From NCBI RefSeq assembly GCF_003171515.1, contig NC_089393.1:2790001-2854000 (forward strand): a DNA stretch of 64,000 nt, read 5' to 3'. The notes under the pieces are model-generated. The model did no database searches. It saw only the letters and a list, made by a program, of their open reading frames with translations, and was not told the origin of the DNA. The first letter of the stretch is position 1. Each line of letters begins with the position of its first letter. Source of the DNA: Pyrenophora tritici-repentis (taxonomy: Eukaryota; Ascomycota; Dothideomycetes; Pleosporales; Pleosporaceae). The translations under genes and the position numbers were made by a program. This document shows, piece after piece, positions 4,780-29,463 of the stretch.

Positions 4780-7470
4780 TACTATTTAGGCTAGCTAATG
4801 CCCTAAGCACGTTCTAGCACTTTGTAAAGAATGTACTACGCCTATACCTAGACATCTTCTATATAGCGTATCTTGATAATATTCTAATCTACAGTGAGAA
4901 CCTACACGAACACTAAGAACACGTCTGATTAGTCCTTAACGCTTTAAAGGAGGCTAGACTATATCTTAATATCGATAAATGCGAGTCTTACAAGAACGAA
5001 GTCGTCTACCTTAGCTACGTAATTAGCACTATCAGAGTACGAATAGATCTTAAGAAGATATAAGCTATAACAGACTAGGAATACCTAAACAACGTTAAGG
5101 ATATACGAGCCTTCCTTAGTTTTGCGAACTTCTACTAAAGATTTATTAATAACTTCTCCCGCCTAACAACTTTGCTTATAGCTCTAATAAAGAAAGATGT
5201 AAAACTCGCCTTTAACAACGCCTGCTAAAAGGCTATTAATAATCTTAAGCACGCTTTTACTATAGCTCTAATCCTCTAACATTTTAACCCTAATTTACTA
5301 ATTATTGTAAAGGCTAACGCCTCTAACTACGTTACCGCAGGAGTGCTATCGCAGCGTGACACTAATAGGATACTTAGGCCTATCGCTTATTACTTTAAAA
5401 GGATGAACCTAGCTAAGAATAATTACGAGATTTACGATAAGGAGCTGCTAGCTATCGTATAATGCTTCGAATAGTAGAGACCTAAACTAGAAGGAGCTAC
5501 GTTTCCTATTACTATGTTAAGCGATTATAAGAATCTACAGTACTTTATAATAACGAAGTAGCTTAGCTACTAATAAGCACGCGAGGCTAAATACTTATTA
5601 TAATTTAACTTTATAATTATATACCGCCCTAGAAAGTAAGGCGAAAAGCCTAATACCCTTACCTAACGTTCTTAAGACTAGCTCGCCTAAGACGAAGCCT
5701 AAGAAGCCTAAAAGTAGACGCTACTAAGACCTAAACTATTTAAGGCGCTAGTAGAAATCTACCTTATAGAAATATATCGCTCTATCTATTAAATTATTAA
5801 GGATAAGTACTAAGCTAACCTACTTAACTTACTAGTTAAGGAAACCTTGCAACTACTCAAGGATAGTGCTTAATAGTTAAAGATCTTAACCTTAAGCGAA
5901 TGCAAAACTAGAGGAGGACGCTTATACTATCGCGACTAACTTATTATACCTAACAATAATAAGCTTGAGATTAAAATTCTCTACACAGCACATAACTCCG
6001 CGTGTAGTAGCTATCTTAGCCGTAGTAAAACACTTTAACTCGTCTAACGCGAGTACTACTAGCCCTATGTATTTAATATAATTTATTAATATATTAGCTG
6101 CTGCTATATCTATTGCCGTTTAAAGGCTTCTCGCAAGAAGTACTACGGCCTTCTAAAACCGCTGCCTATACCTAAGCAGAGATAGTAAGACATCTCTATT
6201 AACTTCGTTATTAATCTCCCTAAATCTAAAGAATATTAAAATATTATAGTAGTTATTAGCTAATTAATAAAATACCGTTATATAATCCCTTATACTAAGA
6301 TGGAAGCTGTAGACGTCGCACGAATGTTCCTCCGCTACGTGTGGTATAACCACGGCCTCCTAGACACGATTATTTCTAACTAAGGTAGCTAGTTCGTCTT
6401 CGCCTTTTACAAGAAATTATGTAAATAACTAAAAATCGACCTGCGCTTCTTAATAGAATTTTATCTTAAACTAATAGTTAAACTAAGAGTATAAACGCTG
6501 TTATAGAATAAGTCCTACGCGCGTACATAAACTACAGATAGGATAACTAGGTAAGCTAGTTACCTACTACCTAGTTCGAAGCTAATAATACTATATCTAA
6601 ATCTACTAGGGTATCCCTAATAATAGCCTATTACAGCTAGAACCCTTAAATAGGTTTTAAACTGCCCTCTAGCATAAAGAGACCTGCGTACTAAGCCTTA
6701 TAGGCTTAAGAAGTAAATTAGATACTTAAGAAGATGCGCGATGTAACTAAGTTTATCCGCGAAGAAATAATATAGGCATAAGCTATGCAATAAGAATATA
6801 CTAACTAAAAATAGTCGCTAGCACTAGTGTACGAGGTTAGCGACGAAGTCTAGCTTGTGATGGGCTAGACCCATGTAGGCCTACTTGTAGACTAAGAGAG
6901 CAGCGCAGTCATGCCTCCTACATAAATATCGACTACGCAAGCTGAATCGCGTTGATTCAACTTGTGCATGCCTTTTGCGCAGGCGTGGTGCATGTAGTCG
7001 TGCCGATAGTCTTATAGACTCTCGCCCCTTACATAGCTTAACGCCTATAACATTAGAGCACAACGCGCCTTAAAAAAGCTTAACTAAAAGAACCTTAGTC
7101 CTTACCGTATAGTTAAGAAGATCTCCTCTTACGTATACTACCTCGACCTACCCGCTATAATAAAGATTCATCTAGTTTTTTATGTATCCCTCCTCCGACT
7201 TACGGCAGCAAAATTAGATTTCCTGCCTTGCTAGCACGTACTGCTACCTAAGCTAGTAGTCGTAGACAGTAAGCTATATTACTTTATTAAGAGCGTTAAG
7301 AACCTCTGCTACAATAAACAACAAAAGCGACACGAGTACCTCGTAAAATAGGTTAGCTATAAAGAACTTTCTTAGGAACCTGCCGAAGAGCTAGAAGAGA
7401 ACGACGCTATTATTTACTTCTACGAAAAGGTCCTAGAAAAACTAAAACCGTTAATATAAACTTAACCCGA
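4780..7470 (+). mobile_element. Ty3/gypsy pol relic with C-terminal chromodomain
   Basis: Read through many stops, the plus strand gives gypsy pol in order. Reverse transcriptase has AYLDNILIYSEN near 4860-4900 (normally YLDDILIYS) and the FLSFANFY block near 5110. RNase H-like sequence includes DYKNLQYF near 5525. An integrase core lies near 6180-6420 with DISINFVINLP and a WYNHG block. At 7320-7440 is a chromodomain-like tail with RHEYLV, then EPAEELEEN. Such chromodomains direct chromoviruses to heterochromatin. The 5' part of pol, gag and the 5' LTR are absent, cut off at the probable copia LTR ending at 4775. Nearly all damage is C-to-T/G-to-A, indicating RIP. Confidence 0.88.
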
Positions 7471-10785: not shown

Positions 10786-12546
10786 ATGCTCAAATTCATA
10801 GCCTTCTTTCCCTTCTTCGCCTTAATTACAGACTACGTTTATATGCTATGGCGGCGACGTTATCTCCCTCCAGGACCGTTTCCATTACCTATTGTTGGAA
10901 ATCACTTCCAGACGCCTTCGCACAAGCCATGGATTACATGGGAAAAATGGGCTAAACACTATGATTCACCTATGATTACCCTCTGGATCGGACGGCAGCC
11001 GCGCATCATATTGAGCGATGCGTGGGTCGCGAGTGACCTGCTAGATAAAAGATCGGATATCTTCTCAAGCAGACCGAGATTAATCGCTATGGGCGATGCA
11101 ATCAACGCTACAAACACGAATCAAACTACATTGCCATACGGCGACCGATGGAGGAAACACCGAAAGCTTATGGTATATGACTTTACCCTGTTCACGGTTG
11201 TTATAGAACAAGCTAACAGCTTAGCACATGGCCGTTGGCTCCCAAGCCGTACGAAAATATCGTACATTCCAGGCTCACGAGTCAGCGATTCTGGTCCGTG
11301 ACTTGCTTCTAGAGCCGCATGATTTTGAGCTCTCTATCGAGCGATATTCTGTGTCCGTTACCTCCATCGTAGGCTGGGGTCGGCGTGTTGATCGCAAGAA
11401 CGACTACGTTGCCCAACAAGCCCTTAAACTGATGGAAGCCGTTAATTTTGTCGTCCCTGGTATCTATCTCATGGAAGCCGTTCCAGGTTTGATACGATTG
11501 CCTGCTTGGCTATACGCGTTGCCAAGCCAGATGCAATTAGGTGCCAGTATACTGTCGCGCTACTTCTACCTACTCACACAGGAAAGTGCGGAAGCGGCCG
11601 AAGATAACTTCGGGAAACACGTCATGGCTTCTCAGCAAGCTAGCCACATGACAGATATCGAGGTTGCAGGCCTGATGGCTAATCTGATTGGGGGTGGAGT
11701 AGACACGACCAGCAGCACCATGATATCGTGCATTCTCGCAATGGCATACTTTCCTGAAGTACAAGAAAAAGTCCACGCTGAGTTTGATGCAGTCGTTGGA
11801 AATGATCGCTCTCCGAACTGGGATGACATCGACTCGAATGCGCTGCCATACTTGACTGCAGTCGTAAGTTGTAGGCATAACAAATGTCGGTCTTATGTCT
11901 AACACTCCACAGGTCAAAGAAACGCTTAGATGGAGGACTGTGACTGTACTAGCAGGCATTCCTCATGCTAATACCGTAGGTTTCGATTACAAGGGCTACC
12001 ACTTCCCAGCTGGTACCAACTTTACGGGCAACATGTGGGCCATCCATAGACATCCGCGCGACTTTCCAGATCCGGACAGATTTATACCCGAGAGATTTTT
12101 TGATGGCAAAGATAGCGCGAAACAACCTTACCCGAACAAGTATGGCATGAATCCTTTCGGTTGGGGACGTAGGCAGTGCAGCGGTCAGCCGCTTGCCGAA
12201 CAAGGTCTTTTTTACTCTCTCGCGCGAATGATATGGGCTTTTAATATTTTGCCGGGCCTTGACCAGAATGTAAGTGTTCTCGTCTTTTTGGGGAACGCTC
12301 ACTATACATGTTTGCTCCGCTCACACATTGCACCAGCAAAATGAAGTCAAGTTGGACATATTTGCCTACACCAACAGCGAGAATATGCGGCCGGAGCCTT
12401 TCCAGGTGCAATTCATCCCACGCTCAGACGCGATCAAGAAGTTGCTCTTAGACGAGGCTGCAGAAGCACGTGAGGCGTTGAGGACCTACGATGGAGAAAC
12501 TCGAGTAACAATGGAGAACGCTGTGAACAACCCTGCAAAGCTTTGA
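10786..12546 (+). CDS. Cytochrome P450 monooxygenase
   Basis: A haem-thiolate oxygenase of 530 aa in four exons: 10786-11172, 11225-11863, 11913-12269 and 12337-12546, with introns of 52, 49 and 67 bp. All junctions keep the frame. An N-terminal hydrophobic anchor (residues 1-20) is followed by a PPGPFPLPIVGN hinge. The I-helix GGGVDTTSS lies near residue 287, the K-helix E-x-x-R is KETLR (E345-R348), and the haem loop is FGWGRRQCSG with Cys431 as axial ligand. It probably sits in the ER membrane and needs a P450 reductase. Sequence style recalls the OrdA/O-methylsterigmatocystin oxidoreductase-like group of secondary metabolism, but the substrate cannot be told. It has no stop or frameshift, unlike its neighbours, and may be the only live gene of this block. 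Confidence 0.9.
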
Positions 12547-16528: not shown

Positions 16529-16536
16529 GGTTGGAT
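16529..16536. repeat. hAT target-site duplication, left
   Basis: GGTTGGAT directly precedes the left TIR and is repeated exactly at 22419-22426. Eight bases is the hAT family length. Confidence 0.93.
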
Positions 16537-16690
16537 TACGCTGGCAAATGGGTCGGGGTGTGGTTGGGGTTGGGTTAGAAATTTTGCGACCCCAACCCAG
16601 CCCCAACCCATTTGTCAGCGCCAAGCTTAGGGTTGGGTTGGGGTTGGGTTGGGGTCGCACGGACCATGGGTTAGGGTTGGGTTATAGTAA
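16537..16690. repeat. hAT left terminal region, telomere-like G-rich array
   Basis: After the 17-bp TIR come runs of GGGTTGGGGTTGGG and a GGGTTAGGG segment. A second, inverted copy of the TIR sequence (ACCCATTTGTCAGCG) lies at 16606-16620, facing the one at 16539-16553, so the first 84 bases can fold on themselves. Copies of CGACCCCAACCCA and GGGTCGCACGGACC match the unit repeated at the right end. Transposases of hAT elements bind such subterminal repeats. Confidence 0.8.
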
Positions 16691-16848
16691 AAAAATTGCA
16701 AGATGTATAATATAGATTTCAATAAAAGAAAAGTTTATATAGTATCACAGTAGATTAACACAGTGTAGCATTAACTAGTTTCATTTATAATATACAGAGG
16801 CTTCGCCAGCTAGCATTTAAGCACGTGTATCTAGATATATCTTATAAT

Positions 16849-17421
16849 CTAGAGAAAAGCTAGTAACTCGCGCGCAAAGTAGCGCCTAGCCAATTGAGAA
16901 TCCTTCTCTTGAATAGTAACCCTCTTTGCGTGAATAGCATTGATGTTGCAGTCTATAAAAGTTATTAAATGAAAAATAGTATAGGGTAGATAGACTATAC
17001 CCTCAAAATAACCAACTAAGAAAGCTTCTGTAGCTTCCTGAAGAGCTTCGATTGCAGATCGTTGAAAGCGGATATCGGCCTTGTGCACCTGTGCAAATTC
17101 GCGCACTACGCGGGAAAAGGGGAGTTTTCGCAAGAGTAGTTCAAAACCTCTCTGGTATCTCTTGATTTCCCGTAATGCGACAGCTAAGCTAAATTAGAAA
17201 ATAGCTGTGATAAACGACTGTGATAACCTACTGCCGGCCTTAAACTTGCGCTTCTTCTTAACAGCTACAGGTGCCTTTCGCGTAGACTTTCCTGCTACTT
17301 GACGTCTAGCCTTACTAGCAAGGGCCTTCTGAGCCGGCTTGCCGCCAGTAACTGTCTTGCCATCAGGACCACCCCGGCCGGCTTTACCGGTGACCTTAGG
17401 CCGTGGTTTTGTCCTTGCCAT
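16849..17421 (-). CDS. Transposon-borne histone H3 variant
   Basis: Three exons on the minus strand, 17421-17232, 17183-17001 and 16952-16849, with two 48-bp introns, give 158 aa (canonical H3 is 136). The start MARTK equals the H3 N-terminus. After an insertion of about 20 residues, a TGGK segment and LASKARRQ keep the pattern of the modifiable tail. The fold is complete: [54 protein letters not shown], then [21 protein letters not shown]. Loop 1 has canonical length, so it is H3-like and not CENP-A-like. Changes include QVHKAD for QDFKTD and a C-terminal extension ([10 protein letters not shown]). Multicopy genomic H3 genes do not normally lie within transposons; here the gene lies wholly between hAT TIRs. 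It probably enters nucleosomes or competes for H3 partners. Confidence 0.93.
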
Positions 17422-17931
17422 TGCGTAGTAGAGTAGATGATGAACGTAGGCGACGTATGTGATTAATTACTGTGATAAATGTGTTCGACAATTAAGAAAG
17501 TAGTAGGCTGAAAGAGTTAGGTAGCTGGAAAGTTTGGGCGACGGCAATTTCCCGATTTCCGCACTAGTAAAGGCAGCAGCGCACGGACTGCATGACGTAA
17601 TTTGCTGTTTCACGATCGCATACAACCATTTCTGTTGCAAAATCAGTAGCGAGCATATCATACAAACGTGTTAAACTGCTGTGATAAACGCCTAGCTCGC
17701 GCATGCGTGCAGCCCAAAAATGAAGGAATCATCGATGTGTTGATCATTTTGGGTAATTTCCGCGTTTTCGCGCTAGCGCAGGCAGCAGCGCACGGACCAT
17801 TTCTAGGTGAGCATAATGCTGTCTACCCATTTCTCCAGCCCCTGACGCCCAGTAACTCCCAACACCTAATAACTCTCTTTACTACATTGAAAACACCCCA
17901 TTAACAACAGCGCATTATCACAGTCCCCGCC
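17422..17931. promoter_or_regulatory. Divergent promoter of H3 variant and acidic gene
   Basis: The 510-bp gap between the two ATGs holds three TTATCACAG-type motifs: inverse copies at 17470 and 17679 and a direct one at 17915. It also has a partly repeated segment: AATTTCCCGATTTCCGCACTAGTAAAG... near 17549 resembles AATTTCCGCGTTTTCGCGCTAGCGCAG near 17755, each followed by GCAGCAGCGCACGGAC. The duplicated halves suggest two copies of one control region facing each gene. Confidence 0.6.
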
Positions 17932-19135
17932 ATGCCTGTCGCGAAAGAGCAAGTCGGCGACGTACCTGAAGGCCTAGTTCCAGCCATCAAACTTGAACCT
18001 CCGCCTGGGTTCGAACAAGATGAGTGGGAGCAGCTTACCGATGTAATAATCACAGCCATTTATCACAGCTTATGCTAATATAAGCAGGGATTTGCGTGTG
18101 AAGCTGACGAGATTGACGGTATCTTAGATCAAAGAGGTAGTGGGGGTTCACGAAAAGGCCGACCTATCAATTTGAGCGTCCCCTATACTGGCTCTCTGAG
18201 TGGTAGCGCCTGTGCTATTGCTCAACGTGAACGCAAAGCTCTTTTCGATAAAGAGGAGAAGGTACTTGAAAGCGTTAGAACAGCCGACCGCTCCGCGAAG
18301 TACCAACTGAAGAAATCGCTTTTGCAACAGCCTAAGTATAAATTAGCAAATAGTGCTAGACAGGCTAAGCTGCTAGAGAAAGAGTGGGATATACTTTCAG
18401 AGAAGCGGTTTACCCAGAAAAAGTCTGGTAAGTTATCACAGCTGTTTATCATAGACATCTGCTAATAGACTATAGCTGAATGGCTAGAGACAAACCTAAC
18501 TCATGTGCATCGTAAATGGGATGCGATCACTAAGCAGGTGGATATGAGAAAACACGAGATCACGATTGCGAAAGTGCTTAGCAAAGATGACAAGCCCACC
18601 CATGACATTAGTGGTAGAGGAATAGCAAGAATTTACGGCTCAGGTGGTGTTTTGCAAAAGATTCTTCGAAAGACCTATCAAGAAGGATTAGCAAAGCTTA
18701 ACAACAACGACTTTGAGAGCAAGGAGGCTAAGAGAGAGTTTGAGAAGTTCGTGGAGGAACTTACACCTGATGAGATGAAAGTCGTAACTGATAATGACTG
18801 GCAGTAAGTTTATCACATCCTTTTATCACAGAGATACTAATATAATAAGGCAACGGGAGCCACCTAGCATTCTCGACTTACTTGGTGACGCTGATATTGA
18901 GCTGGAGGCTGATAAGCCGTACGTTAAAGGTGACGATAGCGATGAGTGTGAAGAAGAGGTTGACTATGACTCTGATCTTGAGGAGCATTTCAATTCACTT
19001 GAAGACGAGTACGAGGATGACGACCAGTGGGCTGCTGTACAGAAGCAGGCAGCGCTTGAGGAGTCTGAGGAATCTGAGGACTCTGAGTTTGAGGGGTTTC
19101 CGGATTCTGATGCCGCTTCTGAGTCTGATAATTAG
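17932..19135 (+). CDS. Acidic-tailed protein, possible histone chaperone
   Basis: Four exons, 17932-18042, 18085-18427, 18476-18803 and 18850-19135 (introns 42, 48 and 46 bp), keep one frame and give 355 aa. I do not recognise a domain. Residues 60-170 are rich in Lys/Arg/Glu and predicted helical. The middle has a conserved-looking SGRGIARIYGSGG stretch. The last 75 residues are strongly acidic (DDSDECEEEVDYDSDLEEH, then Glu/Ser runs), a hallmark of many proteins that hold histones. It is transcribed away from the H3 variant, the starts being 510 bp apart, so shared control is likely. TTATCACAG lies nine bases before the ATG. The chaperone role is inference from the tail and from the neighbour. 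Alternatives are a transposition accessory factor or a chromatin targeting protein. Confidence 0.8.
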
Positions 19136-19484
19136 AGTTTTAGGCTAAGACACTTTCAAGCATTGAGGGATAGTAAGCAGTTATCACAACCAATTAACAC
19201 GGATTATTGCGCCATATAATCTTAACTTAAGATTGTGATCTGTCATTTATGCAGATTAATATCCGTGCACTCCTGACGATCTCTGTGTTTACTATGAGGC
19301 ATTAAAAATGATATTCCGCTAGTAATATGCCAAGGTTTCAAGTTAAATTACAGGCGTCATAGCGCAAGCAAAGCTGAGAGGAGCGTGAGAAGCCTTGAGT
19401 CCTACATCCAAACTTAAACTTCTCAACTTTTTCCTATTGTGTGCTACTACTATTAATGCCTTATTCTACTACTTTCTAGAAGCG

Positions 19485-22130
19485 ATGGACATAGCTGCAC
19501 AGTCTATTGAGCTTATGCCTAATCCTACTAATATTGAATTTCCGGAGGACCTCAACTGTTTAAAAATCAATTCTCCACAGGTTACAAAGGGGGTGACAGG
19601 AGAACGATTGGATTAGTGAAATATCCAAATAATCGTTTTCTGCAAGATTATAGTGTAAGTGAGATCTTAGGGACATGGACAGCGTGGTGGAGTAATACTA
19701 GCTGGGGTATAAACCCTAAAAATGATAACCCACGATGGAACTCTCCTACTCGCTATGGCACAGTATGGTTACGATTTGGAGAAGCTGCTGAGCTTCGAAC
19801 TGGCCACCCCTACGTGTTCTGCTACAACTGTAGTCTTGCACTCCAGCATCCAAATCTAGGTGGTATTGGGACAAAGCACCTTATTACTCATCTTAAAACA
19901 AAAAGCTGTCGAAATGTCCTTACTCCTATTCATAATGAGGCAGACTTATCGGCCTCTACTCTATCCCAACGTCAACAAAGAAACAGTACTTCATCAATAC
20001 CAGCTTACACTACTACTACCTTTGAAAAGGAGCTTGTACGGGTAGTAATCGACAGCAACTGGTCATTCCGAACAGTTGAACGACCATCTTTCCATCGATT
20101 TCTTCGGTTCCTTCGACCAGATACTGTGATAATTAGTCGTTGTAAATTCAAGACGATATTCAAGAGTCAACATGAGGAAGCAAAAAGGTCTATCCTTCGA
20201 GATCTTGGAAAATCAACAAAGATCTCAATCGCCTTAGATGCCTGGTCTGCAGCTAATCACCTCTGCTTTCTTGCGGTAAAGGGTTACTACATTAACAAAG
20301 ACTGGAAACTTCAGGAAAAGCTACTTGACTTTCTCCCTATGCGCGGCAGGCACACCGGTACTTCTATGGCAGACGAGGTACTGCATATTCTTCTGGATAC
20401 AAAGACCAAAACCCAGCTTCTAGCTATTACTTGTGATAACGCTAGTAACAATAGCGTACTTGCTCGCACTCTCCAGTCTAAACTCCAAGAAGTCGACATT
20501 CAGTGGAGTGCCAGAGAAAACACTATCCCTTGCCTTGCCCATATTATCAACCTCGTTGTCCAGGATATTATCCAACACCTTCGGCTAGCAGCAACTACAG
20601 AGTTAGGAGCAAGGGATACCCTACAGAGACGTCATATACAGGACATTGAGACGCATATTTCAGTCCCAAATTCCCTTCGCAAGGTATTCCGCTTTTAACA
20701 CATTCATTTATCACATACTAATAATAGACTAGATAAGGGCGATTTGTATCGCTATTGACGTATCACCTCAACGCTTTGAGCGGTTTATTGCGGTACAACA
20801 ACATCTACCGCCAAAGGAGCGATTATCTGTTATCCGCGACGTGAAAACCCGATGGAACTCAACATACGACATGTTAGAGCGCGCGCTCGAAATCCAAAAA
20901 TATATTGATGAATGGCTTAAACAAGAAATCTTGCTAAGGCCAGGTAGTCACCTGGATAGCTCTCTAGACAACAATCAAATGGCTGAGATTGATTTCCGGG
21001 ATCTTAAACGCCTCCGCTTATCTTCGACTGAGTGGCATCATCTCGAACTCGTTACTGAGATGCTTAAACGGTTTAAAACAGCAACTAGCTTCCTCAGCCA
21101 GAACGAGAAGCCCCAGATTCAGTATATTTGGTTAATGTACAATCGACTGTTTGATTTCTTGGACAAAATGTCAGAGGACCTAGATGAGGATGAAGAAAAT
21201 CAAGATGATAGGGAATGGCTAGACGTAGTACGAGCTGCAGCTGACAGGGGTCGTCTAAAACTGAGCAAGTACTATTCGAAGACAGACGCAGAACGTGGGT
21301 TCTTGTTTAATTGTGCCACTATCCTTGATCCAACGCAGAAGCTTACAGCATATGAAGTATGATTATCACAGCTATTTATCACAGTCACGCTCTAATTACG
21401 CTTATAGGACGATTCATGGGAGCCACAGTACAAGCATCTCTACCGAGGCCAATTTCTTGCTTACCTTGATCGTTATGATAATACGGACGGGAGAGGTTCA
21501 ACCCCAGGCTCTAGCATAGTCAAAAGGAGGTCACTTGGGAATGAGTGGTTCAGAAAGCCAGCTCCTCCCCCTACATCAGCGTTAAACAGCTTTTCTTCCC
21601 AGAACTCTTCACTAGTAGAATCAGACAAGACAACTGGCCCAACCCGCCAAGAAGGAGAGTCCTACCTTAGTACTGCCTGTGTAATGACAGATGACTCTTT
21701 CGATATTCTAGAGTGGTGGAAGACGAACGAGCCTACCTACCCACGACTATCCCAAGTGGCGAAGGATATACTAGCAATACCAATTGCTCAGGTTGGGGTT
21801 GAAAGAGTTTTCAATGTTGCTAAGGATGTTATTGGTAGTCGGAGGCACCGACTATCTGCCCGGACAATACAGCAGATAATGGTTCTTAAGGATACAATAT
21901 CTCAAGAGGAAGAACAGGGTCTAGACTACCTAGTTGCTCAATTAGGGGAGGATGGAGAGCCAATTGACGAGGTTAATGATCTTTTTGAGCTTCCAGCCTC
22001 GTTAGAGCATACCTTCGATATAGATGAGGAGAACCAGACTACAGAAGAAGAGTCGGAGGAAGAGGTCCAGGAGGAGCGTCAATTGCCACCTCGAAAGCGC
22101 CAGCGTCCTCAGCGCTACCGTGATAATTAG
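19485..22130 (+). CDS. hAT transposase (BED finger, hATC domain)
   Basis: The body has exons ending 20683, then 20733-21356 and 21408-22130, with introns of 49 and 51 bp, about 816 codons from 19583. A BED-type zinc finger reads FCYNCSLALQHP...GTKHLITHLKTKSC. The catalytic core shows IALDAWSAANH (first Asp), ITCDNASNN (second Asp) and CLAHIINLVVQDI. TRWNSTYDMLERA is followed by the C-terminal hATC dimerisation block ILEWW, LAIPIAQVGVERVFN, RHRLSA. No internal stop is present, so it may be active. The 5' end is unresolved. The ATG at 19485 opens a frame that differs from the main one, which itself is open from 19538, so a further intron, a non-ATG start or a frameshift must be assumed. Confidence 0.88.
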
Positions 22131-22223
22131 CTGTGTTAATATATCTCGTTTTATGTATCTACTATATCATCAACGTGTACACATTATCTTAATTAAGTGT
22201 TGTTCCGTTAAAGTACCCAAAAA

Positions 22224-22418
22224 ATATAACCCAACCCCAACCCAACCCAACCCAACCCAACCCAACCCAAGCCCAACCCTACCACTTGGTCTGTGCGACC
22301 CCAGCCCAGCCCTAACCCATGGTCTGTGCGACCCCAACCCAACCCTAACCCATGGTCTGTGCGACCCCAACCCAACCCCAACCCAAGACTGGGTATACCC
22401 AACCCATTTGCCAGCGTA
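22224..22418. repeat. hAT right terminal region with three 33-bp repeats
   Basis: It starts with an array of CCCAA units (22229-22270). Three tandem copies then follow of a unit beginning GGTCTGTGCGACCCCA and ending in CCCTAACCCAT or a variant, at about 22290, 22321 and 22354. The TIR lies at 22402-22418. The unit is present once, inverted, in the left end. This is the asymmetric subterminal repeat layout common in hAT elements. Frames on both strands here are repeat artefacts. Confidence 0.85.
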
Positions 22419-22426
22419 GGTTGGAT
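22419..22426. repeat. hAT target-site duplication, right
   Basis: GGTTGGAT follows the right TIR, an exact match to 16529-16536. Confidence 0.93.
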
Positions 22427-22914: not shown

Positions 22915-24155
22915 ACGCTAGTCCCAAAGAGGTACACACGTGACCTGTACCCTCGAACAGTTACTCCCTCCTTGAGGATTTTCGGGGGAGATTAATCGGG
23001 ACACAGACTTTTTCCTCTCCGGTGGCAACTCATTGCCACTTGTGAAGCTCCAAGATCTGATAAGGAAGGAATTCAACAACGCACCTCGATTGAGTCTAAT
23101 GATGAACTCACGCGAGCTGGGAACCATGGCATCACTGCTGAACACTCACGTAGACAAGGTTGACTGGGACGCGGAGATCGAAGTACAGCTTGGAAATAAA
23201 CCGAATCTGCCCAGGGTGAGACGAGATGTCGGCAATGGATTGACAATTGCTCTTACTGGAGGCACTGGACCTTTGGGTCAATGTTTCCTCCAACAGCTCG
23301 TGTCAGACCCTCAAGTCAAGAAGATCATCTGTCTCGTGCGTACTGTTGGCGACCGCGACCTGCAGAACCTTTCACCTTTCAATAGTCAGAAGACCCAGAT
23401 TGAAGAGGCTGACCTGCCATCTTTACCACCGGACGATATTCTGTCAGAGGCAGACTGTATCCTGCACTGCGCCGCAGATCAGAACTTCTGGGACGGCTAT
23501 CATGCCCTTCGGCCCACCAACTTTGACGCTGCAAAGGTGCTGGCCCATGTCACCGTCCGTACCGGTGCGTCCCTACACGTTTTGAGCTCAGGTTTCGTGG
23601 CGGCCTACGAAGACGAGAATGATCTAAGGATGGTTACATCTCAACGAAATGGGTTACGGAAAGATACCTGAAACGTGTTGCGTGCCAGACTTCAGTACCC
23701 ATCACTGCTCATCGTCCAACACAAGCTCGCTGCAGCGAAGGAGAAATCAACGCGCAGTGTGAGGCTAGCGTTGCAGACGACATAATCTCGATCTCCAAAC
23801 GGCTGGGTTACTGACCAGACTTCACCAACTTGAGTGGAACAATCGACATTGCACGCCTTCAAGATGTCGCAGTCGCCATAGCACGGTCAATCACTTCGAG
23901 GGATTACTCGGACACAGTTGACATGACTGTGATCGACTACCCAGGCTCAGAGCGGATATCTATCGAAAGTCTGGCTTCCCTTTACGATGCCCTGTTACAG
24001 CATAGCGAGAATCAGTCTGTCGCAAAGTTGCCCACAAAATCTGTATTGTTTTAGGTTGGAGATGCAAAGCGTGCGGAGCTATTTGAGTGGTTCTTCACGG
24101 CGCAAGATGTGACGATGCAGGATGAACATGGAAATCGGTTGGTTACAAAACGTTG
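22915..24155 (+). pseudogene. PKS-NRPS C-terminal PCP-reductase fragment
   Basis: The start matches a carrier-protein tail: TDFFLSGGNSLPLVKLQ, with the Ser that would carry phosphopantetheine. It then runs into a reductase domain with IALTGGTGPLGQ (nucleotide-binding GxxGxxG), HCAADQNFWDGY and LHVLSSGFVAAYE. At about 23625 the frame shifts, after which DGYISTKWVTERYL (catalytic Tyr-Lys region) continues. A TGA stands near 22976 and further stops near 23812 and 24054. Such PCP-R ends release the product of hybrid polyketide-peptide synthases. Only the last part of a giant gene remains, and it is inactive. Confidence 0.85.
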
Positions 24156-26923: not shown

Positions 26924-28182
26924 GATAGTGGTGGTGATGCTGCGCTCGAAAGGTCAGTGACAGCCAGCATCGGGAAGCGGGCAGCGGGTAGCGGGATTCA
27001 CTCCTATTTACCCGCACGAACCGGATCGGCTGGCCTTTGATCAGAATATGCACATGGCTGACCGCGGCGCAGTCAGCTCTGAGCTGAGCTTGGCTAATCT
27101 TAGTTGTTGTCCAGCAGAAGCCGTGATAAATATTGGTGCGTAATGTGCTTTCCGTCCGTATCCTTTGTCCTGCCTTGTTATCATTTCCGCCGCAGGATCT
27201 CACCTGATGTGGGGTAACACCACCGCCTTTCTTATGCTCAAATCACCCAAATTCATGTACTTACTTTTCTGGTTACTAGTCAGTATTGCGATGAGAGGTA
27301 TGATGTTACGAATCAGATGTTGAATGTAAGCCTTGGCGAGTGCCGTCGCCCTTGGAGTCATCAAACCCGAAAGCCTTCATCATGCCGGGGTTTTGATGAA
27401 TTTCAAGAATATTCCATTCGTGAAGGTCCCTCGGATCATAGCGCAATTACGACCGTTCAAGAGATTATTTGCAAGAGAAATCTTGCAGATGAGTATTCGT
27501 GATGAGTGCATGTCATGGTCATGTCCTGAAATGTATGGCATGATCGATATGCCAGTGCATGAGGATGGTGCATGGCATGAAACGTCAATCATTCACACTG
27601 CATCTCTCTAGACGCGTCGCCCAAAGCACGCGCTTTACCTAGCCTTCCATTTTTTTTGGTCCCCATTTTTTTGCAAAGGAGAGGATGAAGCGATACTGTT
27701 TCTACATGCTCACAATACAAAGGACGATGTGATAAAATGGAACCAGTAACTTTGCCTTGAAGAGCAATGTTAGTGTCAATAGTGGCAGCCGCAAACTCAT
27801 TAATGACACCACGTGAGATATTATTACTCTCACATAATCTATATCAATGCCGCCTCGTGTAGCCTGTTTCTAGCTTCATCGCTTTTGGGTTTTTCGATAT
27901 TTACTTGATTTGGAGGCAATCTGCGAGTTACCTTCCCATAGTAACATTGTAACCTGACTTGATAACGCTCGCCGCAGCCACATTCACGACGCTCACATCA
28001 TCCCCAAAATACATTGTTGCTTAGAAATACTGCGTTATGAAAATACACCCCTTCAAACGGTGTTGCTTCACAAAGGCCAGATAGAGCCACTTCACTTGTT
28101 TCACTCCTCTCGTGATATGGATTGATAAAATACTTGTTAGTAAGTCCCCTTTTGTTGTACATACACTCTAAAATAAGCAAAT
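26924..28182. other. Intergenic stretch, no gene recognised
   Basis: Short frames occur on both strands (for example 27333-27611 plus and 26910-27203 minus), but none shows a family resemblance or plausible splicing. The right part, from about 27950, should contain the promoter of the mannosyl-3-phosphoglycerate synthase gene. Confidence 0.5.
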
Positions 28183-29463
28183 ATGCGACTCCGAACCAAC
28201 TCCCGAACTACTCAAATCGGCAACGTCGAGATACACGACCTCTTCCATGTTCTACAGCTAGAAGCTGGTTTCCCCATCATACGTTCTCGAAGCAACGCTG
28301 ACAACAACACAAATAACAGCAGAAATGTCTCTTTCTCCTATTCCTCGCTCTACGCCATCGAAACGCAACTCGCAATCATAGTCCCATGCATGAACGAGGA
28401 ACTACACATAATCGAGGGCGTACTCCGCGGTATACCACACCACTGCCTCGTCATCCTCGTGTCCAACAGCACCCATGAGAAGTTCGAGCACGAATACGAA
28501 CTACTCAAGCAGCTATGTGACGACACAGAACGACAAGGTATCATAATCCACCAGCAAAACTCCGCCCTCGCCCACGCCTTCTGTGCCGCCAACATGCCGG
28601 AAGTGGTAAACCAGACAACTACACCGAACCACGTCTGCAACGGAAAGGGCGAAGCGATGATGATCGGCGTACTGCTCGCCAAACTCGCTAACAAGCAATT
28701 CGTAGGATTCATTGATGCCGATAATCTCGTTCCTGGATCCGTGCACGAGTACTGCAAGGTCTTCGCCGCTGGAATAAACTACTCGCTATCCAAGGCTGGA
28801 CAATTCGATACGACCCGGTCGACCCAAGATTTCCTACTGCCGACGAACTCCCACGCTATGGTGCGTATAAAGTGGAACTCGAAAGCAAAGGTCGTCGACA
28901 ACGAGATTACATTTCCAGAGACGGGACGCAGCTCGCGTGTTGTGAATAAGTGGATGAATGAGCTGTTGCAGGGTATACATGGTGACGGAGCTTGTGCAGA
29001 AATGATCCAGACGGCTAACGCAGGCGAGCATGCTATGGACATCAATCTTGCTCTCAAGCTTCGTTTCGCAACCGGGTACGCTGTTGAGCCATTCCAGTAC
29101 ATCGATATGTTGGAGAACTTTGGTCGCGTTTCCATGGGAGATTATGAGGACGAAGCTTCCGATGATTCCACAGTCCGCGTCCTACAAATCCGTACCCTTA
29201 ACCCTCACTTCCACGACACGGGAAAAGGCTCAGATCATATACAGCAGATGATTGCCCAGGGACTTGGTACTATATACCACTCACGTTTGGCACAAGACAC
29301 GCTAAAGGACGCCATGGACAGACTCTCACCACCGTTCCGGGGCGATGGTGGCATCCCGATACCGCAGGAAACGCACGTGTATCCGTCGATGCGGAAAATC
29401 GACTTGAATGTTTTTCGTGGTGCGATAGGGTCCGAAGCTATGGCGTTCAACTACTGTTTTTGA
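28183..29463 (+). CDS. mpgS: Mannosyl-3-phosphoglycerate synthase (GT55)
   Basis: An intronless gene of 426 aa. The enzyme joins GDP-mannose and 3-phosphoglycerate to give mannosyl-3-phosphoglycerate, the first step to the compatible solute mannosylglycerate, in the cytosol. Visible hallmarks are LAIIVPCMNEE (residues 63-73), GIPHHCLVILVSNS, NGKGEAMMIGVLLAKL (153-168), FIDADN with the metal-binding DAD at 178-180, and NAGEHAMDINLALKL. The family's usual core is about 380-390 aa, so this one has a longer N-terminus. No gene for the matching phosphatase lies nearby. It marks the border where intact genes begin. Lack of introns, unlike most neighbours, would fit old transfer from prokaryotes, but many fungi have the gene. 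Confidence 0.93.
   Translation: MRLRTNSRTTQIGNVEIHDLFHVLQLEAGFPIIRSRSNADNNTNNSRNVSFSYSSLYAIETQLAIIVPCMNEELHIIEGVLRGIPHHCLVILVSNSTHEKFEHEYELLKQLCDDTERQGIIIHQQNSALAHAFCAANMPEVVNQTTTPNHVCNGKGEAMMIGVLLAKLANKQFVGFIDADNLVPGSVHEYCKVFAAGINYSLSKAGQFDTTRSTQDFLLPTNSHAMVRIKWNSKAKVVDNEITFPETGRSSRVVNKWMNELLQGIHGDGACAEMIQTANAGEHAMDINLALKLRFATGYAVEPFQYIDMLENFGRVSMGDYEDEASDDSTVRVLQIRTLNPHFHDTGKGSDHIQQMIAQGLGTIYHSRLAQDTLKDAMDRLSPPFRGDGGIPIPQETHVYPSMRKIDLNVFRGAIGSEAMAFNYCF

What the first reader, a model, noticed from the sequence alone, without database searches (positions are those of the whole stretch)
16537..22418. A hAT transposon that carries its own histone H3 variant and an acidic partner protein
Seen directly: hAT TIRs, an exact 8-bp duplication GGTTGGAT on both sides, and three gene models between them: H3 variant, acidic-tailed protein, transposase. 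No cargo-type histone gene in a hAT element is known to me. In a genome that mutates and silences repeats, a mobile element that supplies its own nucleosome component and a possible chaperone could mark its own chromatin, escape silencing, or alter host chromatin. The surrounding copia is ruined by RIP while this element is clean.
Basis: partly seen in the sequence, partly recalled or inferred. Interest (0 to 1): 0.96.

Follow-up and report, generated by a model that had tools for sequence, protein, structure and literature searches.

The report
Transposon carrying a K9-less histone H3
A jumping gene of the wheat tan-spot fungus, first described in 2013, carries its own odd histone H3 beside an acidic partner gene; the histone lacks the lysine that other fungi methylate to silence DNA, so it likely helps the element weaken that silencing.

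Summary
A 5,882-bp hAT element (16537-22418) has 17-nt perfect TIRs, an exact 8-bp duplication, and three genes: an H3-like histone (H3L), an acidic-tailed protein and a hAT transposase. The genome, Pyrenophora tritici-repentis, holds 11 full-length and 22 short or interrupted copies. It is not new: Manning et al. 2013 described this element, both size forms and H3L ESTs, as captured H3 that may be drifting.

My evidence points elsewhere. H3L falls in a separate H3 clade (support 99/98) and shares no intron with host H3. In P. teres, H3L and acidic genes have consecutive locus tags. The acidic protein occurs in six named Pleosporales species; an old genomic fragment gives dN/dS 0.09. A paired intron motif is almost confined to the element (53 of 54 sites).

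H3L of five named species keeps K14, K18 and K23 in 5 of 5 but K9 and S10 in 0 of 5. Two unnamed metagenomic relatives keep K9. In Neurospora, an extra H3 with K9L or S10A semi-dominantly reduces DNA methylation. I infer, untested, a transposon-encoded histone that weakens heterochromatin, loaded by its acidic partner. Lack of RIP may simply reflect youth.

The parts
16529..16536 (.). left target-site duplication GGTTGGAT
   Evidence: exact match to 22419-22426
22419..22426 (.). right target-site duplication GGTTGGAT
16537..16557 (+). left terminal inverted repeat (first 17 nt perfect)
   Evidence: the same 17-mer, or a one-base variant, ends all 33 copies
22398..22418 (-). right terminal inverted repeat
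16549..16690 (.). left subterminal G/T repeats (GGGTTGGG type, 51-nt inverted match to the right end)
22228..22400 (.). right subterminal A/C repeats with 33-nt direct repeats
16849..17421 (-). H3L: histone H3-like gene, 158 aa, exons 17421-17232, 17183-17001, 16952-16849
   Evidence: gene model; Pfam Histone 9.4e-32; open in 9 of 11 full copies and 21 of 22 short or interrupted copies
17422..17931 (.). shared upstream region between the divergent H3L and acidic genes, three TTATCACA-type sites (17471, 17680, 17915)
   Evidence: promoter role inferred
17932..19135 (+). acidic-tailed protein gene, 354 aa (exons 17932-18042, 18088-18427, 18476-18803, 18850-19135); RKGRP AT-hook-like motif (label recalled), predicted helical core, acidic tail
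   Evidence: the 3' splice site of intron 1 is taken from homologue P0001; open in 8 of 11 full copies
19485..22130 (+). hAT transposase gene (exons to 20683, 20733-21356, 21408-22130), frame broken near the N-terminus in this copy
17184..17231 (-). H3L intron 1 with paired TTATCACA motif
18804..18849 (+). acidic-gene intron 3 with paired TTATCACA motif; introns 18043-18087 and 18428-18475 have variants
21357..21407 (+). transposase intron 2 with paired TTATCACA motif; intron 20684-20732 has a variant
18473..21745 (.). segment missing from the short 2.6-kb form (element 1-1937 joined to 5209-5882), which keeps H3L

Best explanation
This is the hAT transposon of Pyrenophora tritici-repentis published in 2013, and its H3-like protein, which has neither lysine 9 nor serine 10 of normal H3, likely acts as a nucleosome subunit that cannot carry the H3K9 silencing mark, is predicted to be loaded by the acidic protein encoded beside it, and would thereby weaken H3K9-dependent silencing of the element.

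Shown: mobility (copies at many different target sites), all three genes in the 11 full-length copies, intact H3L in 30 of 33 copies, a separate H3L clade, conservation of the acidic gene and past purifying selection on a stretch of it, next-door placement of the two genes in P. teres by locus tag, absence of K9 and S10 in the five named species, and an element-specific intron motif shared by all three genes.

Inferred: incorporation into nucleosomes (most recalled DNA-contact residues and R116, D123 and L126 are kept), inability to be methylated by the fungal H3K9 methyltransferase, chaperone function of the acidic protein, and a benefit to the element. The effect could be local, if H3L is deposited on the element, or global, if some 30 gene copies dilute normal H3.
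For: H3L from 5 named Pleosporales keeps K14, K18, K23 and R26 in 5 of 5, but K9 in 0 of 5, S10 in 0 of 5, G90 in 0 of 5 (E, E, E, N, E) and C110 in 0 of 5. [quoted passage not shown] K9L and R8A abolish and S10A greatly reduces DIM-5 activity in vitro (PMC3248561, abstract and passages). P. teres H3L has leucine at position 9. The host has a Pre-SET match of the kind found in H3K9 methyltransferases and DNA methyltransferase domains. In mammals position 90 is read by the H3.3 chaperones HIRA/UBN1 and DAXX (PMC6171237, passages), so a change there fits a need for another loader. The acidic homologues have acidic ends (24-36 D/E in the last 75 residues of all seven). dN/dS is 0.09 over 48 codons of an old acidic fragment. 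The H3L clade has 99/98 support. H3L ESTs are reported (PMC3538342).
Against: No expression, binding or chromatin data were made here. Two unnamed metagenomic relatives in the same clade keep K9 (2 of 2), so loss of K9 is not a feature of the whole clade. K4 is kept in 3 of 5 (one record starts after it) and K27 in 4 of 5, so the tail is not simply stripped of silencing lysines. One full copy is RIPed. The RIP pathway that needs the H3K9 methyltransferase acts, by the passage I saw, on single-copy regions flanking repeats, while repeats themselves are hit by a Rid1 pathway without it (PMC12543289), so losing K9 need not protect the element's own body. Host H3 has S87, so the mammalian A87/G90 chaperone rule may not hold in this fungus. 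The pairing of H3L with the acidic gene is shown in only two species; no acidic homologue was listed from Alternaria, Paraphoma or Massariosphaeria, although H3L is. The acidic protein has no Pfam, PDB-sequence or fold match and a poor model (pLDDT 66, pTM 0.31), so 'chaperone' rests on composition and neighbourhood. The histone model is also poor (pLDDT 50).
Confidence: 0.4

Rival explanations
1. H3L is a captured host H3 (transduplication) that has drifted and does nothing; the acidic gene is a passenger too. This is the reading in print (2013, and 2019 for such elements at large).
For: The published authors favour recent capture and possible drift. H3 capture by hATs without lasting function is reported from other fungi, where all extra copies are RIPed. 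The internal deletion that made the short form kept H3L in what looks like one event, so its spread there is no sign of selection.
Against: H3L is not a recent copy of host H3: separate clade, different intron positions (host: one intron in codon 19; H3L: in canonical codons 45 and 106), and relatives in other Pleosporales with the same C-terminal signature. Most core DNA-contact residues are kept. Homologues 37-66% identical to the acidic protein remain long predicted proteins, with dN/dS 0.09 on an old fragment.
Confidence: 0.3
2. H3L and the acidic protein are accessory transposition factors (opening target chromatin or shaping the transposase-DNA complex, as the Myb-like ORF1 of Harbinger elements does; recalled), not anti-silencing factors.
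For: The acidic protein has a conserved RKGRP AT-hook-like motif and predicted long helices. The short form makes a fusion of its N-terminal half with the transposase dimerisation domain (2013 paper; P0009). The three genes share an element-specific intron motif.
Against: Nine other hAT transposase matches in the same genome, 24-30% identical (a capped list), lie at places where searches for H3L and the acidic protein found nothing; their flanks were not read. Loss of K9 and S10 has no obvious role in transposition.
Confidence: 0.2
3. The element is free of RIP only because it spread recently or because this lineage rarely undergoes RIP; H3L has no part in that.
For: Mean pairwise difference 0.0018 for 10 full copies and 0.0009 for 19 short ones. 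One older full copy is RIPed. Four of five similar matches to another hAT transposase have no stop codon.
Against: Nothing here excludes it; it is compatible with an anti-silencing role that matters for expression rather than for RIP.
Confidence: 0.6

Closest known systems
H3L transduplication hAT of P. tritici-repentis (Manning et al. 2013, PMC3538342)
   Same: Same species, same three genes (H3L, central ORF, transposase), long form (~5.6 kb, 10 copies there) and short form (2.3 kb, 16 copies there) with the in-frame chimera
   Different: Here 11 long and 22 short or interrupted copies, measured at 5.88 and 2.6 kb. The paper gives the central ORF as of unknown function; a find for H3K9, lysine, heterochromatin and chaperone in its main text gave nothing.
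hAT with captured H3 in Pseudocercospora, Cercospora and Sphaerulina (Dhillon et al. 2019, PMC6710886)
   Same: hAT with 8-bp duplications and histone H3 cargo
   Different: Intronless H3 retrocopy, all extra copies RIPed, ~9.5 kb, no similarity to the P. tritici-repentis element by their account; no acidic partner mentioned in what I read
Neurospora hH3 K9L, K9R and S10A alleles (Adhvaryu et al. 2011, PMC3248561)
   Same: H3 without K9 or S10 present beside wild-type H3; K9L equals the residue in P. teres H3L
   Different: Engineered single substitutions in canonical H3; H3L differs at many further sites and is natural
CenH3 (CENP-A)
   Same: H3 fold, divergent tail, some shared residues ([15 protein letters not shown])
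   Different: Loop 1 has the length of H3, whereas host CenH3 is three residues longer; does not group with host CenH3
Plant VANDAL anti-silencing proteins (VANC; recalled)
   Same: A transposon gene thought to counter host silencing
   Different: VANC is not a histone; no sequence relation was tested

Membership tests
hAT superfamily DNA transposon | 8-bp target-site duplication | tested here: met
   8 of 11 full and 15 of 19 short copies perfect
hAT superfamily DNA transposon | short terminal inverted repeats | tested here: met
   17 nt perfect, 21 nt at 95%
hAT superfamily DNA transposon | transposase with hAT dimerisation domain | tested here: met
   PF05699 2.2e-20
hAT superfamily DNA transposon | BED-type zinc finger (frequent, not universal; recalled) | tested here: inconclusive
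   no zf-BED match in Pfam, but the query lacked the first residues
Published P. tritici-repentis H3L element | H3L, central ORF and hAT transposase between TIRs; long and short forms | tested here: met
   against PMC3538342 section 20
Canonical histone H3 | near-invariant N-terminal tail with K9 and S10 | tested here: not met
   K9 and S10 absent
Canonical histone H3 | histone fold and DNA-contact residues | tested here: met
   PF00125 9.4e-32; in P. tritici-repentis H3L 11 of 11 recalled DNA-contact residues kept, fewer in the others
CenH3 (CENP-A) | longer loop 1 | tested here: not met
   H3L and host H3 have six residues in the stretch, host CenH3 nine
H3 retrocopy hAT (Mycosphaerellaceae) | intronless H3 copy, RIPed | tested here: not met
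   two introns in H3L; 10 of 11 full copies without RIP-type change
Histone chaperone (acidic protein) | known chaperone domain or fold | tested here: inconclusive
   no Pfam match over cut-off, no PDB-sequence match, fold search best E 4.8, low-confidence model
Histone chaperone (acidic protein) | binds histones | not testable with these tools
   only single chains could be predicted; no experiment possible

The most novel reading that the evidence does not exclude
A hAT transposon lineage of Pleosporales fungi has evolved its own heterochromatin-blind histone: an H3 that keeps the acetylatable tail lysines but lacks K9 and S10 and the chaperone-read G90, paired with its own acidic loader. 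It is a natural counterpart of the Neurospora K9L and S10A alleles that dominantly reduce DNA methylation, used by a mobile element to blunt H3K9 silencing and the H3K9-dependent branch of RIP.
Probability: 0.3. Interest if true: 0.93.

Novelty: already known. Interest (0 to 1): 0.62.

Why it matters
The element is in print, but what its histone does has stayed open since 2013, when the authors asked whether altered chromatin helped transposons spread. The loss of the very residues whose substitution semi-dominantly reduces DNA methylation in Neurospora turns that question into one experiment. If true, it would be a case of a mobile element that rewrites the nucleosome itself to escape silencing.

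Tried and rejected
Rejected: an assembly join (many copies with different duplications); H3L as a copy of host H3 or CenH3; capture by this one copy alone. 'K9 lost throughout the H3L clade' was rejected after two metagenomic relatives were found to keep it.

Led nowhere: an H3L profile search, swamped by tandem canonical H3 gene models (best 120 of 7,987 listed); a scan of viral contigs for the acidic protein; Pfam, PDB and fold searches of the acidic protein; structure of H3L (pLDDT 50); open frames in the flanks; mention of histone or transposon in a proteomics paper's main text (find only). No search of the phage, plasmid or E. coli collections was made. No nucleotide sequence of other Pyrenophora species was on hand, so dN/dS of H3L could not be measured.

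Rows dropped: the H3L table uses one sequence per species. P0112 (a second P. teres record, mis-spliced, also without K9) and the P. tritici-repentis records P0019, P0050, P0053, P0059 and P0071 were left out. The P. tritici-repentis row is P0020, which differs from the window protein at one residue (55). The seven rows were picked by eye from the 120 listed of 7,917 hits for their C-terminal signature. Two canonical rows without the anchor word were skipped in the tree. The dN/dS stretch is the 48 codons, in two blocks, that align without doubt, out of a longer decayed fragment. A truncated transposase-only fragment without TIRs or H3L (C2:4951952-4954085) is not counted among the 33 copies.
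Full report
The finding holds as an observation. Window 16537-22418 is a complete hAT element with perfect 17-nt TIRs and an exact 8-bp duplication, G/T-rich subterminal repeats and three genes. H3L is 158 aa on the minus strand with two introns. The acidic protein is 354 aa with three introns, one splice site taken from the homologue P0001. The transposase carries the hAT dimerisation domain. The transposase frame of the window copy is broken near its start under my gene model; 5 of 11 full copies have it open, against 9 of 11 for H3L and 8 of 11 for the acidic gene. H3L is open in 21 of 22 short or interrupted copies.

The genome is held and is P. tritici-repentis, judged by 99% identical proteins of that species. 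It contains 11 full-length copies at 95-100% identity and a short form, element 1-1937 joined to 5209-5882: 19 uninterrupted short copies and three interrupted ones. One truncated transposase-only fragment lies on C2. Perfect 8-bp duplications flank 8 of 11 and 15 of 19. Two short copies on small contig C18 mirror two on C7 and may be the same locus assembled twice; two on C4 have mirrored flanks. 33 of 41 Histone-family matches in the genome are H3L, one in each of the 33 copies; the other eight are not in the element. Acidic-gene matches lie in the same copies, apart from one decayed fragment on C7 and one match of no significance (E 0.09). Nine other hAT transposase matches, 24-30% identical (only the best candidates scored), lie elsewhere, where those searches found neither gene.

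This is published. Manning et al. 2013 (PMC3538342; [quoted passage not shown] They conclude that H3L matches neither H3 nor CenH3 and may have drifted. Dhillon et al. 2019 (PMC6710886; Results and part 1 of the Discussion read) call the event recent and independent of the H3 retrocopies in hATs of Mycosphaerellaceae. Six searches of the held library found only these two as relevant to H3L or transposon-coded histones (listings only for the rest). In both papers a find for H3K9, lysine, heterochromatin and chaperone gave no occurrence in the main text.

Evidence that the cargo is old. (a) In a tree of 23 rows the seven H3L-type sequences form one side of a branch with support 99/98, apart from canonical H3 and host CenH3; several rows are long and inner order is unresolved. 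(b) Host H3 has one intron, in codon 19 (read); H3L has introns in canonical codons 45 and 106; none is shared. (c) The acidic search found 18 proteins: 11 from P. tritici-repentis and 7 others, from P. teres (two), P. seminiperda, Bipolaris sorokiniana, Exserohilum turcica, Parastagonospora nodorum and one unnamed metagenome, 37-66% identical. Order Pleosporales was looked up for six of the species with either protein (seven lookups with Exserohilum turcicum under its current name). Whether a transposase and TIRs surround them could not be seen. (e) A decayed acidic fragment on C7 differs from the element by 12 synonymous changes in 36.8 sites and 4 non-synonymous in 107.2, dN/dS 0.09, Fisher p 1.5e-5, and keeps a recognisable intron 2 at the same place. 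(f) The paired motif TTATCACANNNNTTTATCACA occurs 54 times in 40.9 Mb: 52 in the 33 copies, one in the C2 fragment of the element, one elsewhere. In the window copy, 9 of 15 single TTATCACA sites fall in introns, which are 335 of 5,882 nt, against one site in the other 58 kb. Its role is unknown; a binding site or a shared origin of the introns are both possible.

What H3L may do. Against host H3, H3L of five named Pleosporales (P. tritici-repentis, P. teres, Paraphoma, Alternaria, Massariosphaeria) keeps K14, K18, K23 and R26 in 5 of 5, K27 in 4 of 5, K4 in 3 of 5 (the Paraphoma record starts after it), and K9 and S10 in 0 of 5. At position 9 P. tritici-repentis has T or V depending on gap placement (HMMER, MAFFT). 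Its tail insertion brings a lysine at residue 8, preceded by P and followed by V; in Neurospora DIM-5 is inactive on R8A and acts poorly on S10A, so that lysine is an unlikely substitute. Two metagenomic members keep K9, so the loss is not a clade-wide rule. G90, the residue read by UBN1/HIRA and DAXX in mammals, is E, E, E, N and E; host H3 itself has S87, so that rule may not carry over. C110 is N in 7 of 7; the C-terminus is changed and longer in all seven. The 11 DNA-contact residues that I listed from memory are all kept in P. tritici-repentis; two of them vary in the others of the five.

[quoted passage not shown] One of two RIP pathways depends on the H3K9 methyltransferase, but by the passage seen it acts on single-copy regions flanking repeats, not on the repeats themselves. 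The host has a Pre-SET match and DNA methyltransferase domains. From this I infer that H3L makes nucleosomes that cannot carry H3K9 methylation, and that the acidic neighbour is its loader. The loader role rests on acidic ends (24-36 D/E in the last 75 residues of the seven homologues), gene pairing and the altered chaperone patch. No domain, PDB or fold match supports it and the model is poor.

Against a protective role: one full copy is RIPed (228 of 279 changes), and clean copies are explained by youth alone (mean pairwise difference 0.0018 for 10 full, 0.0009 for 19 short). RIP-like flanks may predate the insertion and say nothing about protection; the index itself is unsure on short pieces.

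Verdict: a real, mobile, three-gene hAT already described in 2013, so the novelty label is 'already known'. The additions are its age, the conserved partner, the element-specific intron motif and the K9/S10 loss, which together make a precise, testable and unproven mechanism.

Noticed in passing
G000 C5:244071-244204, C5:1188794-1188927, C5:3206045-3206178, C6:1053156-1053289, C8:2015860-2015993 (L064-L068): Five 134-bp, almost fully palindromic miniature elements with a TIR one base different from the hAT's, each with a perfect 8-bp duplication; the middle occurs in both orientations. Likely moved by this transposase. Three more single ends with that TIR were seen.
   Followed up: partly
16537-22418, introns and upstream regions: Paired TTATCACA motif in introns of all three genes, almost exclusive to this element in the genome (53 of 54 sites); the one other site is at C2:256541. 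Function unknown.
   Followed up: partly
G000 C7:1128624-1134567 and C18:6455-12398; C4:2928690-2936820: Pairs of short copies in inverted order with mirrored flanks; C18 (35 kb) looks like a second assembly of the C7 locus.
   Followed up: partly
G000 C7:2008491-2008781 (L042): Decayed fragment of the acidic gene, about 70% identical at the DNA level: trace of an older wave.
   Followed up: yes
G000 C1:7229741, C3:2425803, C2:3669338, C3:68917, C4:1190316: Five similar hAT transposase matches, 24% identical to this one, four without a stop codon, in open frames of 820-839 aa. Whether they are one family was not tested.
   Followed up: no
window 22976-23671: Carrier-protein plus NAD_binding_4 reductase domains starting about 560 bp right of the element; a P450 piece lies at 11225-11902 to the left. 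Possibly a metabolite gene cluster broken by repeats.
   Followed up: partly
window 28177-29463: Mannosyl-3-phosphoglycerate synthase domain (Pfam 4.8e-156), a family I would expect mainly in archaea and bacteria (recalled); origin in this fungus not examined.
   Followed up: no
P0085, P0087: Unnamed metagenomic H3L-like histones that keep K9; P0085 is listed on 18 contigs, the longest 1,999 bases.
   Followed up: partly
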